Origin: Thermoflexales bacterium
GTDB lineage: Bacteria > Chloroflexota > Anaerolineae > Fen-1058
Assembly: GCA_030834835.1 (NCBI GenBank)
Contig: JAUQXD010000164.1
Location: 1 to 6,867, forward strand
Direction of reading: 5' to 3'
DNA: 6,867 bases
Of this stretch, positions 1,467 through 6,191 are shown piece after piece. Position 1 is the first letter of the stretch. Every line of letters starts with the position of its first letter. The notes below the pieces were generated by a model. The model did no database searches, had not been told where the DNA came from, and was given only the letters and a program-made list of their open reading frames with translations. The position numbers were made by a program, and so were the translations under genes.

Positions 1467-2252
1467 CTACAATTGGTCGGCGTATCTCACGCCATTCTCA
1501 AACAACCTCAACCCCAATCGTCCGCGTTCCCCCCGTGACCAACGCGGATGCTGATAGGCGAACACGTGATCCTCGGGATGCGGCATCAGACCCAGCACAT
1601 TGCCGCGCGGATTGCACACGCCCGCGATGTCGCCGAGCGAGCCGTTGGGGTTGATCGGATATTCGCCGTTCGCGGATTGGCCGTCCTCGCTGGTGTAAGT
1701 CAACGCCACTTGATCGCATTCGCGCAGCCTCTGCAAATCATTCGGATCGCTCAACACGAAGTTGCCTTCGCCGTGCGCGATGGGGCACTCGAGCAAATCG
1801 CTCAGGCCGCGTGTCCACACGCAGGTCTGTGACTGCGGTTTGAGCGTGACCCAGCGGCACTCGAAGTGGCCGTTGACGTTATGAGCAAGCGTGGCGGCAG
1901 ACGTGGTGCGTGATGCGGGTTGCGTGAAGGGCAGTAAGCCCGACTTCACGAGCGCCTGAAACCCATTGCAAATGCCGATGACGGGTTTGCCGCTGTCGAT
2001 GAACTGGGCGACCTCGTCGGCGAAGTAGGCGTTGAGATCGAGCGCGAGGAGTTTGCCCGCGCCCAGCGCATCGGCGTAGGAAAATCCGCCCGGAATGGCC
2101 AGCAGTTGATAATCGGTCCAGCGCCGTTCGTGAGCGCGAAGTTGATTGAGATGCACAATCTCCGGCGTCGCGCCCGCCAGTTCAAACGCTTGCGCCGCTT
2201 CGTGATCGCGATTGGTGCCGTCGGCGTGGAGAATCAAGACCTGTGGTTTCAT
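1467..2252 (-). CDS. purQ: Phosphoribosylformylglycinamidine synthase, glutaminase subunit PurQ
   Basis: PurQ hydrolyses glutamine and passes ammonia to PurL for conversion of FGAR to FGAM, step four of de novo purine synthesis, in the cytoplasm. The 261-residue protein starts MKPQVLILHADGTNRDHEAA and is a class I (triad) glutamine amidotransferase throughout. Visible motifs, numbered from this Met: PGGFSYAD (54-61, oxyanion region), GICNGFQ with the nucleophile Cys95, IAHGEG (158-163), and MPHPE with catalytic His225 and Glu227. It is somewhat longer than the roughly 230-residue Bacillus-type PurQ. The ATG at 2252 overlaps the TGA of the upstream GNAT gene in an ATGA, implying translational coupling. 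A second ATG nine bases earlier (2261) is possible and would add three residues; neither has a good ribosome-binding site. The stop is TAG at 1467-1469. It pairs functionally with purL, from which it is separated by two GNAT genes. Confidence 0.96.
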   Translation of the reverse strand: MKPQVLILHADGTNRDHEAAQAFELAGATPEIVHLNQLRAHERRWTDYQLLAIPGGFSYADALGAGKLLALDLNAYFADEVAQFIDSGKPVIGICNGFQALVKSGLLPFTQPASRTTSAATLAHNVNGHFECRWVTLKPQSQTCVWTRGLSDLLECPIAHGEGNFVLSDPNDLQRLRECDQVALTYTSEDGQSANGEYPINPNGSLGDIAGVCNPRGNVLGLMPHPEDHVFAYQHPRWSRGERGRLGLRLFENGVRYADQL

Positions 2253-2782
2253 GACAGACATTTACCCATGGTGTGAAGATCGACGTAGTCGCCGTCAATG
2301 CACAACGCACATCTGGCCGTGCCTTCGATGGTAAACCCGACCTTGTGATAGAGCGCCAGCGCCGCGGTGTTGTTCGTCATCACGCACAATTCCAGCCGGT
2401 GCAGGTGTTGCTCGCGTGCCCACTGTTCGCACGTTTGCATGAGCTGCGTGCCGATGCCCTGCCGCGTGAACGCCTGCACCACGCCGACGACGATCTGGAT
2501 CGTATGATGATCGTGCCGGTACACGCCGCCCGTCGCACACAGAAAACCGATGAGCGCTTCATTGTCCTCGGCGACGAAGATGGTCTGGTTGTCGCTGGCC
2601 AGCATTAACTCCAGACGGCCGCGCCACCGCCGGGGTGACAGCATACTCGCGTCCGGCGCAAAGACCATGAACTTCGTCTCGCGATCGATTTGCAGGCGCA
2701 ATTGCAGGTAAGCGTCCGCATCCTCTGGCGTGATTTCGCGCACGGTCATGAGGCGCGGCGGCGGTTGAAGTTCGATCAGCAT
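2249..2782 (-). CDS. GNAT family N-acetyltransferase (operon copy 2)
   Basis: A 177-residue single-domain GNAT, predicted to transfer an acetyl group from acetyl-CoA to an unidentified amine. Visible elements: N-terminal MTVREITPEDADAYLQLR, the acetyl-CoA-loop region VVGVVQAFTRQGIGTQLM (98-115, with GIG of the pyrophosphate loop), the helix CEQWAREQHLHRLEL, and the C-terminal ALALYHKVGFTIEGTAR typical of RimI-like members. Start: ATG at 2782 is only 2 nt after the stop of the preceding GNAT; the internal ATG at 2749 (MTVREI) is an alternative that matches the usual family N-terminus. The frame also extends upstream to 2965, but that extension reads through the preceding gene and is not credible. 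It is a paralogue of 2785-3285: about half the residues match, and 16-base identical blocks survive (for example 2418-2433 versus 2951-2966), so the pair arose by tandem duplication. Its stop overlaps the start of purQ. Confidence 0.88.
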   Translation of the reverse strand: MLIELQPPPRLMTVREITPEDADAYLQLRLQIDRETKFMVFAPDASMLSPRRWRGRLELMLASDNQTIFVAEDNEALIGFLCATGGVYRHDHHTIQIVVGVVQAFTRQGIGTQLMQTCEQWAREQHLHRLELCVMTNNTAALALYHKVGFTIEGTARCALCIDGDYVDLHTMGKCLS

Positions 2783-2784
2783 CG

Positions 2785-3285
2785 TTACAACAGCCTGTAC
2801 ATGGTGTACAGATCGACGTATTCGCCATCGACCATCATCGAGTGTTTGGCCGTGCCTTCGATCTCGAAGCCCATTTTCTTGTACAGCGCAAGGCCGCGCA
2901 CATTGTGCGTCATCACAGTGAGTTCCAGCCGGTGCAGTTGCTTCTCGCGCGCCCACTGTTCGCACGCTTCAAACAGCCGCGTGCCGATGCCGTGCCCGAT
3001 GTGCGATTCGCGAATGCCAATGACGATGTGCACGTTGTGATGATTGCGGCGATAATCGCCGCCGTTGGCCCACAGCCAGCCGACCAGCTGCCCATCGTCT
3101 TCCGCGAGGAAGGTCTGCTTGTTGTCGGCCTTGAGAATGTTCGTCAGGCGTTCGCGTTCCTGTTCAACGGTCACTTGCCGTTCGCCCGGTTCAAGCATCA
3201 TAAACTTCGTTTCGTGATCGACTTGTTGCCGCAGCGCCAGAAACGCGGCGGCATCGTCGAGGGTGGCGGGGCGAATCGTGATCAT
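2785..3285 (-). CDS. GNAT family N-acetyltransferase (operon copy 1)
   Basis: A 166-residue single-domain GNAT whose ATG at 3285 overlaps the purL stop (ATGA), so it is probably translated by coupling to purL. It opens MITIRPATLDDAAAFLALRQ, carries an ETKFMMLEPGERQ segment (25-37) seen in a subgroup of small bacterial GNATs, then the core strand LVGWLWANGG, the acetyl-CoA loop in VIGIRESHIGHGIGTRLFEA (88-107; GHGIG with no Arg/Gln at the usual first position), and the C-terminal LALYKKMGFEIEGTAKHSM. A GTG at 3300 would add five residues but lies inside purL and is less attractive. The acceptor cannot be inferred. Nothing in known FGAM synthase chemistry needs an acetyltransferase, so its placement between purL and purQ is either incidental or a regulatory link. 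Its near neighbour 2249-2782 is its duplicate. Confidence 0.9.
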   Translation of the reverse strand: MITIRPATLDDAAAFLALRQQVDHETKFMMLEPGERQVTVEQERERLTNILKADNKQTFLAEDDGQLVGWLWANGGDYRRNHHNVHIVIGIRESHIGHGIGTRLFEACEQWAREKQLHRLELTVMTHNVRGLALYKKMGFEIEGTAKHSMMVDGEYVDLYTMYRLL

Positions 3286-6191
3286 GGCGCTGGATTCCAC
3301 GCGGTCACTAAATCATCAATAGGCAGCGAGATCAACGCTTGCGTGTGCGACGAGATGTTGAGGCGCGGCCCATTCGTCACGACGCCGATTTTGCGAATTA
3401 GCGAATCGGCGAAGTGCGATTCAAAAGCGCGACAATTTTCGGGGCGAACTTCGATGAGCAAACGACTGTTCGCTTCGCCAAACAATGCCTCGATCGGCTC
3501 TTCACCCCCGATCGTGATCGACATGCCCAACCGGCCACCGATGCACATCTCCGCCGCCGCCACCGCCAGCCCGCCCTCGCTCAGATCGTGGCAGGCGCGC
3601 ACGAGGCCCGCGGTCATGGCTTGATGCAGCGTTCGATACGCGGCCAATGCGTACTGCGTACTGCGTGATGCGTGGAGCGTGATGCGTGGTGCGTGATCCA
3701 TGTCCTGCATCTTGCTTCCTGCATCTTGCATCTCGCTTCCCGCATTAAGCAGGTAAATAATGTTCCCCGCCTCTTTCGCATCCATCGTCACGGCTTGATT
3801 CACATCGTCAATCAAACCGATGGCCGAGATCAACAGCGTCGGCGGAATCGCGTGGCGCAAACCGTCTGTGCCGAGATATTCATTGTTGAGCGAATCCTTG
3901 CCGCTGATGAAGGGCGTGCCGTAAGCGACAGCCGCGTCGTAGCAGCCGCGCGCCGCTTCGATGAGTGATCCCAACGTCTCGGGCCGCAACGGATCGCCCC
4001 AGCAGAAATTGTCCAGCAGCGCAATCCGATCGGGATCGGCGCCGACCGCCACCGCGTTGCGAATGGCTTCGTCCACAACATTGATCGCCATCGCGTACGC
4101 ATCGACTTTGCCCAACTCAGGATTGATGCCGTTCGACAACACGATGCCGCGCGTGCCTTTGGTACCAAACGGCTTGAGCACGCACGCATCCGATGGCCCA
4201 TCGTTCTGCGCACCCGTCAACGGCTTGACCACCGTGCCGCCTTGCACCTCGTGATCGTAGATGCGGATGACGGCGGCTTTGGAGCGGATGTTGGGAGAAG
4301 AGAGTAATGCAAGCAGCGTAGCATTTGAGTCGTCGTGGTGCGTAGTGCGTGGTGCGTGTTGCATCCTGCCACTTGCATCTTGCTTCATCTCTGCAATCAG
4401 TGATCGCCTCGGCAGCCCATCATGCAGAAACTCATTCGCTAAATCCAGTACGATGTGGTCGCCGTAACGCACGACGAGGTGGCGCGTGTCGGTGAATGCG
4501 CCGATGTCGGTCAGTTCCACGTCGAAGGTGTCGCACAGCGATTGCAGCACGGCAACATCGCCCGACGGCACAGCCAACACCATGCGCTCTTGCGCTTCGC
4601 TCAGCCAGATTTCCCACGGCGCGAGACCGGGGTACTTCAACGTCACGCGCTTGAGATCAACGTCTGTGCCGATGACGCTGCTCATCTCGCCGACCGCGCT
4701 CGATAATCCGCCCGCGCCGCAATCGGTGATGGCGGTGTACAACACTGCATCCCGCGCCCGCACGATCACTTCGATCAGACCCTTCTCCGTGATCGGATCG
4801 CCGATCTGCACGGACGCGCCAGCCACTTCGCCCGTCTGCGCGTCCATCGTCATCGACGAGAACGTCGCGCCGCGCAGTCCATCACGGCCCGTGCGCCCGC
4901 CCAACACGATGACGCGATCGCCCAACTGTGGCTCGCGCGGATGAGAGTCCTTCGGCGCGAGGCCCACACAGCCGCAGAACACCAGCGGATTTGCGGTGTA
5001 GCCTTCATCATACAGAATCGCACCGTTGACGGTGGGAATGCCGATCTTGTTGCCATAGTCCTGCACGCCTGCGACCACGCCCGATTGAATGCGGCGCGGA
5101 TGCAATACGCCTTCCGGCAATTTATTCGGATCGAGGTCTTGCGGGCCGAAGCAGAGCACATCGGTCGCGGCGATGGGTTTGGCCGAGACCCCCAGCACAT
5201 CGCGGATGACGCCGCCGACGCCCGTATTCGCGCCGCCAAACGGCTCGATGGCCGACGGGTGATTGTGCGTCTCCACCTTGAACGAGACTTCGTACTCGTC
5301 GTCAAAGTCGATGATGCCCGCATTATCGACAAAGGCCGACCGTACCCACGGCGCGTTGATACGTTCCGTCGCGGCGCGGATGTAGGTTTTGAGAATCCCG
5401 TCGATCTGGAAATTGGAGGTTGGAGGCTGGAGGTTGGGAGACGTCCCTCCAACTTCCAATTTCCAACCTCCAACCTCTATCTTCGCCCTAAACGTCTTAT
5501 GCACACAATGCTCGCTCCACGTCTGCGCGATGGTCTCGAATTCCACGTCCGTCGGGTCGCGGTCGATCGATCGGTAGTAGGTCTGGATCGCTTGCATTTC
5601 CGCCAGATCGAGCGCGGCGCGGCGATCACGCGAGAGCGCGAGGAGTTGATCGGCATCGAGTTGTCGAATCGGCAGGATGTCTACTTCGCCGGAGGATTCG
5701 GCCGGGTGGGGGAACACCGGATCAATCGGGCCGAGGGTGTAGCGCTGAATGACATCGTTAGCGAATAAGCGTTTGGCTAACGTCTGTACATCGGCTTGAT
5801 CGAGATCGCCGTGGACGATGAAGCGCTGCCCTGTTGCGGCGCGCTCAACGCCGTTCACACCGATCAACTTCGCGCAGCGCACGATCTGATCGGCTACTGG
5901 ATCGGTGACGCCGGGGCGCAAGGCCGTTTCAATGACTTGGCCGACAAAAGCAGCGACCCCATCGACAGTCCGCCATTGGCAGATTTGTGCGATGGGGTCG
6001 CTGAGCAGTTCAGCGGCAAGGCGATGCAGGTCGTTGGGCGACACGTCGCCTTCGATGAAAAAGAGATCGTTGACCTCCAGACCGGTCAGGTGAGTGAGGC
6101 CCAGCGCGTGCGCATCGGCCAGCAAGCCCGCGGCCCGCGGATCGCGCTCGGTGTGTGATCGAACGATGAGGGTGTGAACGGTCGTCGACAT
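3282..6191 (-). CDS. purL: FGAM synthase large subunit with two N-terminal PurS-like modules (PurS-PurS-PurL), carrying three repeat-derived inserts
   Basis: Catalyses the ATP-dependent amidination of FGAR to FGAM with ammonia from PurQ. Domains, from 969 residues: PurS-like module 1 (about 5-75; ends LAAELLSDPIAQICQW); PurS-like module 2 (about 82-153; contains LRPGVTDPVAD, the hallmark (K/R)PGVxDP, and LFANDVIQRYTLG); the FGAM-synthase linker with WSEHC (225-229, expected catalytic His228); AIRS-type domain pair 1 with FKVETHNHPSAIEPFGG (304-320); pair 2 with YDHEVQGG (645-652), GPSDACVLKP, SGKDSLNNEY (763-772), HDLSEGGLAVAAAEM (868-882) and FGEANSRLL. A stand-alone Bacillus-type small PurL is about 740 residues; the excess is the two PurS modules plus repeat-encoded inserts near residues 238-262, 603-619 and 816-849. 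All recognised catalytic motifs are intact and there is no frameshift, so it is probably functional. ATG at 6191 lies about 29 nt after the predicted transcription start; its ribosome-binding site is weak. First gene of the operon. Confidence 0.95.
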   Translation of the reverse strand: MSTTVHTLIVRSHTERDPRAAGLLADAHALGLTHLTGLEVNDLFFIEGDVSPNDLHRLAAELLSDPIAQICQWRTVDGVAAFVGQVIETALRPGVTDPVADQIVRCAKLIGVNGVERAATGQRFIVHGDLDQADVQTLAKRLFANDVIQRYTLGPIDPVFPHPAESSGEVDILPIRQLDADQLLALSRDRRAALDLAEMQAIQTYYRSIDRDPTDVEFETIAQTWSEHCVHKTFRAKIEVGGWKLEVGGTSPNLQPPTSNFQIDGILKTYIRAATERINAPWVRSAFVDNAGIIDFDDEYEVSFKVETHNHPSAIEPFGGANTGVGGVIRDVLGVSAKPIAATDVLCFGPQDLDPNKLPEGVLHPRRIQSGVVAGVQDYGNKIGIPTVNGAILYDEGYTANPLVFCGCVGLAPKDSHPREPQLGDRVIVLGGRTGRDGLRGATFSSMTMDAQTGEVAGASVQIGDPITEKGLIEVIVRARDAVLYTAITDCGAGGLSSAVGEMSSVIGTDVDLKRVTLKYPGLAPWEIWLSEAQERMVLAVPSGDVAVLQSLCDTFDVELTDIGAFTDTRHLVVRYGDHIVLDLANEFLHDGLPRRSLIAEMKQDASGRMQHAPRTTHHDDSNATLLALLSSPNIRSKAAVIRIYDHEVQGGTVVKPLTGAQNDGPSDACVLKPFGTKGTRGIVLSNGINPELGKVDAYAMAINVVDEAIRNAVAVGADPDRIALLDNFCWGDPLRPETLGSLIEAARGCYDAAVAYGTPFISGKDSLNNEYLGTDGLRHAIPPTLLISAIGLIDDVNQAVTMDAKEAGNIIYLLNAGSEMQDAGSKMQDMDHAPRITLHASRSTQYALAAYRTLHQAMTAGLVRACHDLSEGGLAVAAAEMCIGGRLGMSITIGGEEPIEALFGEANSRLLIEVRPENCRAFESHFADSLIRKIGVVTNGPRLNISSHTQALISLPIDDLVTAWNPAP
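3645..3744. repeat. Composite heptanucleotide array inside purL (insert 3)
   Basis: Plus strand, read in consecutive 7-mers: CAATGCG, TACTGCG, TACTGCG, TGATGCG, TGGAGCG, TGATGCG, TGGTGCG (3645-3693), a 9-nt junction, then TCCTGCA, TCTTGCT, TCCTGCA, TCTTGCA, TCTCGCT, TCCCGCA (3703-3744). In PurL (minus strand) this encodes about residues 816-849, with 7-residue periodicity (AGSEMQD / AGSKMQD and HAPRITL / HASRSTQ). Because 7 is not a multiple of 3, the total length has to be tuned to keep frame. It falls directly after IIYLLN, where other PurL proteins usually carry a conserved GGSEY-type segment. Confidence 0.92.
4336..4384. repeat. Composite heptanucleotide array inside purL (insert 2)
   Basis: Seven 7-mers on the plus strand without interruption: TGGTGCG, TAGTGCG, TGGTGCG, TGTTGCA, TCCTGCC, ACTTGCA, TCTTGCT. 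The order is the same as at 3645-3744: a TGRTGCG family followed by a TCYTGCW family, in the same orientation and read in the same frame (both give a HAPRxT peptide). It encodes about residues 603-619 of PurL, in the linker between the first and second AIRS-type halves, a place expected to tolerate insertion. Confidence 0.9.
5406..5480. repeat. Inverted heptanucleotide array inside purL (insert 1)
   Basis: Left half on the plus strand: CTGGAAA, TTGGAGG, TTGGAGG, CTGGAGG, TTGGGAG (5406-5440). After ACGTC the complementary family follows: CCTCCAA, CTTCCAA, TTTCCAA, CCTCCAA, CCTCTAT (5446-5480). The 20-nt blocks 5406-5425 and 5447-5466 are complementary at 18 positions, so the transcript can form a long hairpin. 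In PurL it encodes about residues 238-262 (VGGWKLEVGG then SPNLQPPTSNFQ), placed between the WSEHC/FRAKI segment and IDGILKTYI, where most family members have only a short loop. Different heptad family from inserts 2 and 3. Confidence 0.92.

What the first reader, a model, noticed from the sequence alone, without database searches (positions are those of the whole stretch)
3645..4384. Two homologous composite heptad arrays inserted in frame in the same essential gene
Arrays at 4336-4384 and 3645-3744 share the same two heptad families, the same order (TGRTGCG then TCYTGCW), the same orientation and the same reading frame, 0.6 kb apart in purL. This looks like one kind of composite repeat element that has entered coding sequence twice, or spread by recombination within the gene. 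The common product, a HAPRxT plus MQDAGS-like peptide, behaves as a portable low-complexity linker. Heptanucleotide short tandem repeats are known mainly from cyanobacterial intergenic DNA; a two-family composite tolerated inside purL is unusual.
Basis: partly seen in the sequence, partly recalled or inferred. Interest (0 to 1): 0.72.

Follow-up and report, generated by a model that had tools for sequence, protein, structure and literature searches.

The report
Drifting seven-letter repeats inside purL linkers
Three variable stretches of a predicted purine-making enzyme gene in this likely Chloroflexota bacterium are written in drifting seven-letter DNA repeats, and relatives fill the same stretches with different seven-letter words that mostly match the words found across their own genomes, so a repeat-making and word-spreading process likely keeps overwriting spare parts of proteins.

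Summary
purL (3282-6191, minus strand) holds three period-7 arrays, not two: 3646-3751, 4334-4405 and 5407-5484. At its own place each beats 1000 dinucleotide and 1000 synonymous-codon shuffles. They belong to a genome-wide set (about 10 per 100 kb sampled) that is patchy through the class, likely Anaerolineae. In 108 purL loci, mostly Chloroflexota, 51 arrays lie in 25 loci; 50 of 51 fall at six variable sites, inside the open frame, with many different heptad words. Two species of one genus use different words at the same sites, and four of six words tested follow the words abundant in each genome. Copies resemble neighbours most and drift with distance. 80 of 186 arrays carry inverted arms (5 of 186 shuffled), usually G-rich arm first (58 to 9).

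The 'two families' are partly hairpin arms (3646-3751) and partly neighbouring variants of one heptad frame. Best reading: a new, coding, word-switching variant of degenerate heptanucleotide repeats. What spreads words between loci is inferred; no enzyme was found.

The parts
3282..6191 (-). purL, 969 aa, phosphoribosylformylglycinamidine synthase subunit with a PurS-like domain near its N-terminus; carries the three arrays
   Evidence: open frame; TIGR01736 577.5 bits against a cut-off of 525.75; PF18072, PF00586, PF02769, PF02700
3646..3751 (-). array at site 3 (PurL residues about 814-849): TGCGTGN-type heptads, then TGCATCY/TGCTTCY heptads
   Evidence: lag-7 score 49.7; synonymous-shuffle maximum 29.4 of 1000; DNA fold z -3.19, 2 of 200 shuffles as good
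3661..3692 (+). G-rich 5' arm of the inverted repeat in the site 3 array
   Evidence: stem score 16, GC skew +0.43
3721..3752 (+). C-rich 3' arm of the inverted repeat in the site 3 array
   Evidence: stem score 16, GC skew -0.29
4334..4405 (-). array at site 2 (PurL residues about 602-620): CGTGGTG-type heptads drifting in register into CATCTTG-type heptads; no stem
   Evidence: lag-7 score 25.9; synonymous-shuffle maximum 24.8; fold z -0.50
   Evidence: lag-7 score 31.9; synonymous-shuffle maximum 28.5; DNA fold z -3.88, 0 of 200 shuffles as good
5407..5426 (+). G-rich 5' arm of the site 1 hairpin
   Evidence: 95% complementary to 5446-5465 (I5); skew +1.00
5446..5465 (+). C-rich 3' arm of the site 1 hairpin
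   Evidence: I5; skew -1.00
1467..2261 (-). purQ, 264 aa
   Evidence: TIGR01737 201.1 bits against a cut-off of 177.8
1902..1926 (-). short heptad run in purQ; weak by score, but before LAHN, where L085, L087 and L113 have arrays before LTHN or LTRN (read by eye from their flanks)
   Evidence: score 11.2, reached by 180 of 1000 shuffles; relatives' arrays

Best explanation
The arrays belong to a genome-wide population of degenerate seven-nucleotide repeats that likely grow by slippage in 7-nt steps, likely gain an inverted arm by fold-back copying, and probably exchange words between loci, and that likely survive in purL where a predicted linker tolerates a stop-free, in-frame filler. Shown: a period-7 excess; drift from copy to copy; inverted arms in 80 of 186 arrays; re-use of the same PurL sites in many genomes with different words; word sets that are more alike within than between genomes; and, between G000 and G001, arrays that diverge about equally at all three codon positions. 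Inferred: slippage as the growth step, fold-back as the source of the second arm, copying of words between loci, and the lack of any function of the peptide. A purifying filter would explain the coding pattern: a pure heptad array has the same reading in all three frames, so it is open in all of them or closed in all of them, and only net lengths divisible by three keep the gene.
For: Period: in 110 purL loci (808,130 bp; two duplicates and the window's own locus included) lag 7 gives 91 segments against 11 at lag 8, 5 at lag 10, 1 at lag 11 and 3, 1, 1 in shuffles; lag 14 gives 52 and the codon-driven lags 6, 9, 12, 15 give 45-47. Sampled contigs: G000 17 arrays in 177 kb, G004 21 in 339 kb, G002 4 in 48 kb, each 0 in three shuffles; G014 0 in 60 kb. 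Drift: match rate falls 0.68, 0.61, 0.54, 0.48, 0.44, 0.42 from one to six heptads apart in 77 arrays of 56 nt or more; arrays were picked by lag 7, so that first value is raised, the later ones not directly. Arms: 80 of 186 arrays have a stem, 5 of 186 shuffled. Sites: 50 of 51 purL arrays in six sites (drawn after seeing them) covering 184 of 969 residues; 45.5% of array residues in columns that at least half of the PurLs lack, against 4.8% of all residues (1000 random placements, maximum 12.7%). Structure: the five stretches of three or more residues below pLDDT 50 in a PurL model of mean 86.6 lie inside the three arrays. Codon positions: identity 0.77/0.84/0.77 in arrays, 0.91/0.96/0.67 outside. 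Word sets: pairs of arrays on different loci share a 9-mer in 116 of 694 cases within a genome and 181 of 4034 between genomes; 0 of 2000 label permutations reach this. Word counts in G000, G001, G002, G003, G004: TGCGTGN 49, 46, 0, 5, 39; TTGGARR 31, 15, 5, 11, 3; TCAGTNN 0, 0, 37, 21, 0; GGAATGN 0, 0, 1, 0, 9; the purL words of G000, G001, G002 and G004 follow them. Other genes of G000 and G004: arrays in the frame of a valine--tRNA ligase, an epimerase, a glycosyltransferase, a polyketide synthase acyltransferase, and between the BTAD and AAA domains of a regulator.
Against: No enzyme or template for spreading words was found. One word breaks the rule: GATCRGG fills site 1 of G004 purL but has only 2 matches in that genome, one of them purL itself. 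GATGCAN has 0 matches in G001 (73% complete) although its purL holds imperfect copies. In G015 lag 7 does not stand out: 17 segments against 20 at lag 8 and 2-6 in shuffles. Arrays are under-represented in genes: 8 of 17 in G000 lie in an ORF of 100 aa or more, while such ORFs cover about 96% of the sample, so coding sites may only be rare survivors. G-first polarity is not universal (G015 2:2, G088 1:2). Low pLDDT at the arrays partly reflects missing homologues in those columns. Within-genome sharing is uneven (G136 1 of 44; G004 with itself 21 of 193, less than G004 with G000, 51 of 357), and random DNA of the same loci gives 6.2% within and 4.5% between. In arrays third-position identity (0.77, 73 sites) is higher than outside (0.67), which simple neutral drift does not predict.
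Confidence: 0.65

Rival explanations
1. Purely local slippage: each array arose on its own from a chance short duplication and expanded by polymerase slippage, with no exchange between loci.
For: Copies resemble their neighbours most; slippage at heptanucleotides has been proposed because 7 nt may be the length that touches the polymerase (passage in PMC4679880).
Against: Word sets are shared across dispersed loci of one genome and differ between species of one genus, which independent births would not give unless slippage favours certain words in each genome.
Confidence: 0.18
2. A composite mobile element with both heptad families entered purL twice, or a MITE/REP-like element moved by a Y1 transposase.
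For: TGCGTR precedes TGCWTCN in 4 of 18 arrays; many arrays have inverted arms; Y1 transposase genes occur in G000 (2 matches).
Against: Words at orthologous sites differ. Y1_Tnp is found in 110 of 150 genomes; array-rich G001 and G066 are listed without it and array-rich G124 is not among those with it, while G014 and G076 have it (4 and 8 matches) and show no match to three common words.
Confidence: 0.09
3. The repeats are selected at the protein level as flexible linkers whose peptide matters.
For: They sit at variable, poorly modelled stretches and inside the open frame.
Against: Peptides at one site differ between genera; DNA periodicity exceeds synonymous shuffles; codon positions diverge about equally; similar arrays fill intergenic DNA.
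Confidence: 0.05
4. Assembly or contamination artefact.
For: The host genome is a fragmented assembly in 1452 contigs with 7% contamination.
Against: Same pattern in many independent assemblies, among them the genome of L096 with megabase contigs (29 TTGGARR matches); the purL matches of the window and of its class-mates in loci L001-L030 have no inner stop.
Confidence: 0.02

Closest known systems
[quoted passage not shown]
   Same: Usually 7-bp units, able to form a hairpin, function unknown (passages of PMC2670836); three heptanucleotides reported for Calothrix (passage of PMC4692102)
   Different: Here the host is likely Chloroflexota, many arrays lie inside conserved protein genes, and words drift along one array; no cyanobacterial genome was obtained for a direct test
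Heptad stems of the Nostoc tRNA-Leu intron P6b (Class I TDNGATT, Class II NNTGAGT)
   Same: Two complementary heptad arms forming one stem; one class of word repeatedly replaced by another at the same site (passages of PMC4476775)
   Different: One intron site and two classes there; here many loci, many words and protein-coding sites
TAACTGA heptamer repeats of Beggiatoaceae, cyanobacteria and Bacteroidetes
   Same: Dispersed heptamer direct repeats; frame-independent stops confine them to one orientation in genes (passages of PMC4679880)
   Different: One conserved word, in the Maribeggiatoa genome mostly just upstream of start codons; here degenerate words that differ between species of one genus
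GGGAATC and GGGGAYT repeats of Xanthomonas and Nostoc
   Same: Heptameric, spread over the whole genome (passages of PMC4692102)
   Different: Described as G-quadruplex formers under-represented in coding regions; TGCGTGN, TGCATCY and TCAGTNN here have no fixed G runs
Rickettsia palindromic elements
   Same: Palindromic repeats inserted in frame in unrelated protein genes (passages of the review PMC10969869)
   Different: Those are about 150-bp families with a conserved peptide; here no common sequence or peptide was seen

Membership tests
Heptanucleotide STRR | tandem units of 7 nt | tested here: met
   lag 7 exceeds lags 4, 5, 8, 10, 11, 13 and shuffles in the purL loci, G000, G004 and G002; not in G015, where lag 8 gives 20 against 17
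Heptanucleotide STRR | several words dispersed over one genome | tested here: met
   17 arrays in 177 kb of sampled G000 contigs with many words
Heptanucleotide STRR | mainly intergenic | tested here: inconclusive
   9 of 17 (G000), 9 of 21 (G004), 1 of 4 (G002) and 14 of 17 (G015) arrays lie outside ORFs of 100 aa or more
Heptanucleotide STRR | direct kinship with cyanobacterial arrays | not tested
   four recalled cyanobacterial plasmid accessions are not held; a typed repeat query found nothing, the low-complexity filter being on
Rickettsia palindromic element | in-frame presence in unrelated protein genes | tested here: met
   purL and other genes
Rickettsia palindromic element | conserved family sequence and peptide | tested here: not met
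   different words and peptides at the same site
MITE or REP element | constant terminal inverted repeats | tested here: inconclusive
   80 of 186 arrays have inverted arms, but the arms are the repeat itself; I saw no constant ends in the printed stems and ran no separate test
MITE or REP element | target-site duplication | not tested
   no clean empty site at close range; G015 purL differs around all three sites
MITE or REP element | a Y1-type transposase in the genomes that carry the arrays | tested here: not met
   not found in array-rich G001, G066, G124; G001 is only 73% complete
Simple sequence repeat contingency locus | near-perfect copies | tested here: not met
   copies drift, match rate 0.68 between neighbours
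Simple sequence repeat contingency locus | on/off frameshifts within a population | not tested
   needs several strains of one species

The most novel reading that the evidence does not exclude
Anaerolineae genomes carry a dedicated writing system for heptad DNA: a genome-specific vocabulary is copied by an unknown template-using enzyme onto hundreds of loci, replacing older words, building G-first hairpins, and repeatedly rewriting the linkers of housekeeping proteins. That would be a new class of concerted, word-switching mobile DNA.
Probability: 0.17. Interest if true: 0.86.

Novelty: new variant of a known kind. Interest (0 to 1): 0.6.

Why it matters
Heptanucleotide repeats have long been known in cyanobacteria, with function unknown (passage of PMC2670836). 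Here several hundred loci (extrapolated from the sample), species of one genus with different word sets, and a set of orthologous protein sites make the question testable: growth, fold-back and word exchange can be read from strain comparisons. If the reading is right, it is also a steady non-adaptive source of linker sequence in conserved enzymes, and a warning that low-complexity insertions in proteins of this group are real DNA repeats and not errors.

Tried and rejected
Shared reading frame as evidence of common origin: rejected, because a heptad array reads one 7-residue cycle in every frame; frame-independent stops were already noted for TAACTGA repeats (PMC4679880, passages). 'The two families are simply the two arms of a hairpin': true for 3646-3751, not for 4334-4405 nor for the similar array at G000:C310. 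Universal G-first polarity: first count 44 to 4; a second set of four genomes gave only 14 to 6; the final table, which includes both sets and uses a skew margin, is 58 to 9 with 13 neutral; kept as a strong tendency, clearest in this genome (22 to 1 in 61 arrays from word-picked loci, one of the 22 being the window's). Loss of mismatch repair as driver: G000 and G001 show only weak MutS1 matches, but array-rich G104, G136 and G088 have full ones. The reversed-pattern control of the word searches is not a clean null: for TGCGTGN it is itself a near-family word (52 matches in G004, 17 in G000). First AlphaFold model (8 sequences) was poor, mean pLDDT 52.8, replaced by one with 60 sequences. Rfam: no match in the window at gathering scores. 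Lag 8 also shows segments in G000 (9) and G015 (20) and was not pursued.

Literature: no paper held has both Chloroflexi and heptanucleotide (0 papers) or Anaerolineae and simple sequence repeats; the 20 of 28 papers listed and 10 of 13 have no title on such arrays in Chloroflexota. The library holds only open-licence PMC papers. All papers cited were seen as passages, not as whole texts.

Sampling: contigs were chosen by number, not content, but two of the 40 G000 contigs (C30, C310) were already known to hold a TGCGTGN match, and one of the eight stretches (G051:C257) was chosen at a known TTGGARR match; its array has no stem and does not enter the polarity count.
Full report
WHAT IS THERE. 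The window is contig C1111 of a 6.48-Mb genome assembly in 1452 contigs (G000; 90.7% complete, 7.0% contaminated). purL runs 3282-6191 on the minus strand and purQ 1467-2261. A lag-7 detector finds three arrays in purL: 3646-3751, 4334-4405 and 5407-5484, with scores 49.7, 25.9 and 31.9. The best score in 1000 dinucleotide shuffles of the window is 21.9; 1000 synonymous-codon shuffles of purL reach 29.4, 24.8 and 28.5 at the same places. So the DNA is repetitive beyond what the protein requires.

WHY THE FRAME AND STRAND AGREE. Three and seven share no factor, so a pure heptad array encodes the same cycle of seven residues in all three frames (CACGCAC gives the cycle HAPRTTH in each). TGCGTGA on the sense strand puts a stop in every frame, so such arrays can lie in genes in one orientation only. 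Shared peptide, frame and orientation therefore say nothing about a shared insertion event. The same frame-independent stops were pointed out for TAACTGA repeats (PMC4679880, passages).

THE TWO FAMILIES. In the whole genome TGCGTGN (three copies) matches 49 times and TGCWTCN 33 times, overlapping matches counted. Of 18 non-redundant TGCWTCN arrays (from the 30 of 33 matches that came with loci), 4 have two or more TGCGTR within 70 nt upstream (the window among them), 4 others have two or more of their own complement GAWGCA there, and none has TGCGTR downstream. In 70-nt stretches of sampled contigs these rates are 0.27% and 0.10%. The association is real but not constant. At 4334-4384 the two words keep one register (CGTGGTG ... 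CGTGTTG CATCCTG ... CATCTTG), so they read as drift within one heptad frame. At 3646-3751 they also form the two arms of a hairpin (fold z -3.19; the third array -3.88; 4334-4405 only -0.50).

A GENOME-WIDE AND CLASS-WIDE POPULATION. In 110 purL loci (808,130 bp) lag 7 gives 91 segments; lags 8, 10 and 11 give 11, 5 and 1; three shuffles give 3, 1, 1; lag 14 gives 52; lags divisible by three, raised by codons, give 45-47. Sampled contigs hold 17 arrays in 177 kb of G000, 21 in 339 kb of G004, 4 in 48 kb of G002, 17 in 454 kb of G015, 2 in 60 kb of G033 and 0 in 60 kb of G014; three shuffles each give 0 for G000, G004 and G002, 2-6 for G015 and 0-1 for the last two. In G015 lag 8 gives 20, so part of its 17 is not secure. 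TGCGTGN matches 59 of 150 class genomes, TTGGARR 33 of 150 and TCAGTNN 51 of 150. 8 of 17, 12 of 21, 3 of 4 and 3 of 17 arrays (G000, G004, G002, G015) lie within ORFs of 100 aa or more, less than the 92-96% that such ORFs cover. Other hosts in the open frame include, in G004, a valine--tRNA ligase, an NAD-dependent epimerase and a glycosyltransferase, and in G000 a polyketide synthase acyltransferase and a regulator whose array fills about residues 267-295, between BTAD (to 262) and AAA_16 (from 296).

SAME SITES, DIFFERENT WORDS. In 108 purL loci (110 less two duplicates, L100 and L104; mostly Chloroflexota, some titled as other phyla) there are 51 array segments in 25 loci. 50 of 51 lie at six sites, drawn after seeing them, that cover 184 of 969 residues: 68-90, 234-266, 593-629, 668-686, 808-852 and 880-906. 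Segments were counted only inside the open frame, and some loci are close kin, so the 51 are not all independent. 45.5% of array residues fall in columns that at least half of the PurLs lack, against 4.8% of all residues (1000 random placements: mean 5.1%, maximum 12.7%). A PurL model from 60 sequences has mean pLDDT 86.6; its stretches of three or more residues below 50 (246-249, 606-614, 616-618, 823-825, 830-840) all lie in the three arrays; thin alignment there contributes. The alignment shows G000 and G001 with TTGGARG at site 1, G002 with TCAGTNN, G004 with GATCRGG, and G015 with none; at site 2, G002 again has TCAGTNN; at site 3, G004 has GGAATGN followed by TGCGTGN read on the other strand, and G002 only a short stretch.

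GENOME-SPECIFIC WORDS. Counts in G000, G001, G002, G003, G004 are: TGCGTGN 49, 46, 0, 5, 39; TTGGARR 31, 15, 5, 11, 3; TCAGTNN 0, 0, 37, 21, 0; GGAATGN 0, 0, 1, 0, 9; GATGCAN 10, 0, 0, 0, 35; GATCRGG 7, 3, 0, 6, 2 (overlapping matches and purL's own included). G002 and G004 are of one genus. The purL words follow the own genome for the first four, partly for GATGCAN (none in G001), and not for GATCRGG. Without choosing words: pairs of arrays on different loci share a 9-mer in 116 of 694 cases within a genome and 181 of 4034 between genomes, 0 of 2000 label permutations reaching the difference; random DNA of the same loci gives 6.2% and 4.5% (99 arrays of seven genomes). By pair of genomes it varies: G136 with itself 1 of 44, G004 with itself 21 of 193, G000 with G004 51 of 357.

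INTERNAL GRAMMAR. Match rate between copies falls from 0.68 at one heptad to 0.42 at six and 0.39 at eight, while off-period lags stay at 0.21-0.28 (77 arrays, picked by lag 7). Stems occur in 80 of 186 merged arrays, 5 of 186 after shuffling. The G-rich arm comes first in 58, the C-rich arm in 9, 13 are neutral. By set, G-first to C-first: G000 with the window 5:1, G004 8:1, G002 1:0, G015 2:2, G104 4:1, G136 6:2, G124 1:0, G088 1:2, eight mixed stretches 6:0, purL loci 24:0. In loci of G000 picked by word it is 22:1. The order reads the same on both DNA strands, so it is not a matter of transcription direction.

MECHANISM. Drift along the array fits growth by slippage from the neighbouring copy. 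Inverted arms fit fold-back copying of a nascent strand; a G-rich first arm would follow if growth starts preferentially in G-rich nascent repeats. Both are inferred. Neither explains shared words, so some copying between loci, by recombination between arrays or by an unknown enzyme, is inferred too. Y1 transposases do not track array load, nor does MutS1; no other gene was tested. Between G000 and G001, array identity is 0.79 (219 sites, 20 gap positions) against 0.85 outside, and nearly flat over codon positions (0.77, 0.84, 0.77; 73 sites each) against 0.91, 0.96, 0.67 outside, as expected if the peptide is nearly free to change; the third position is more alike inside than outside, which I cannot explain.

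PLACE AMONG KNOWN THINGS. It works like the cyanobacterial heptanucleotide repeats (passages of PMC2670836) and most like the Nostoc trnL P6b stems, where heptad classes replace each other at one site (passages of PMC4476775). In sitting in frame inside proteins it works like Rickettsia palindromic elements (passages of PMC10969869), but it lacks their conserved family sequence and is not a member. I file it as a new variant of degenerate heptanucleotide repeats; direct kinship with the cyanobacterial ones was not tested.

Confidence in the best explanation went from 0.66 to 0.65 because lag 7 does not exceed lag 8 in G015.

Noticed in passing
2249-3300: Two adjacent GNAT acetyltransferase genes between purL and purQ look like diverged tandem duplicates (82% over 94 nt; Pfam).
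   Followed up: partly
5951-6003: A perfect 14-nt inverted repeat inside purL; its core GACCCCATCG/CGATGGGGTC is kept in G000, G001, G002 and G004 with different loops and is absent in G015. It sits near site 68-90.
   Followed up: partly
5736-5933: A PurS-like domain (PurL residues 87-152) precedes PurL in the same protein (PF02700, E 1.7e-6).
   Followed up: no
G000 and G001: Both genomes of this genus show only weak MutS1 matches (E 2e-63 and 1e-63), while 135 of 150 class genomes have one over the cut-off; both are incomplete.
   Followed up: no
G000:C871:4-113 (L056): A long nearly perfect TGATGCG array at a contig end, unlike the drifting ones; possibly a young expansion that broke the assembly.
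   Followed up: no
sampled contigs of G000 and G015: Lag 8 also gives repeat segments (9 and 20), possibly a different repeat kind.
   Followed up: no
L085:6061-6135, L087:7211-7299, L113:4666-4752: Heptad arrays in what look like the purQ genes of other Chloroflexota, each ending just before a stretch that reads VTLTHN or VTLTRN, the place of the short run at window 1902-1926 (read by eye).
   Followed up: partly
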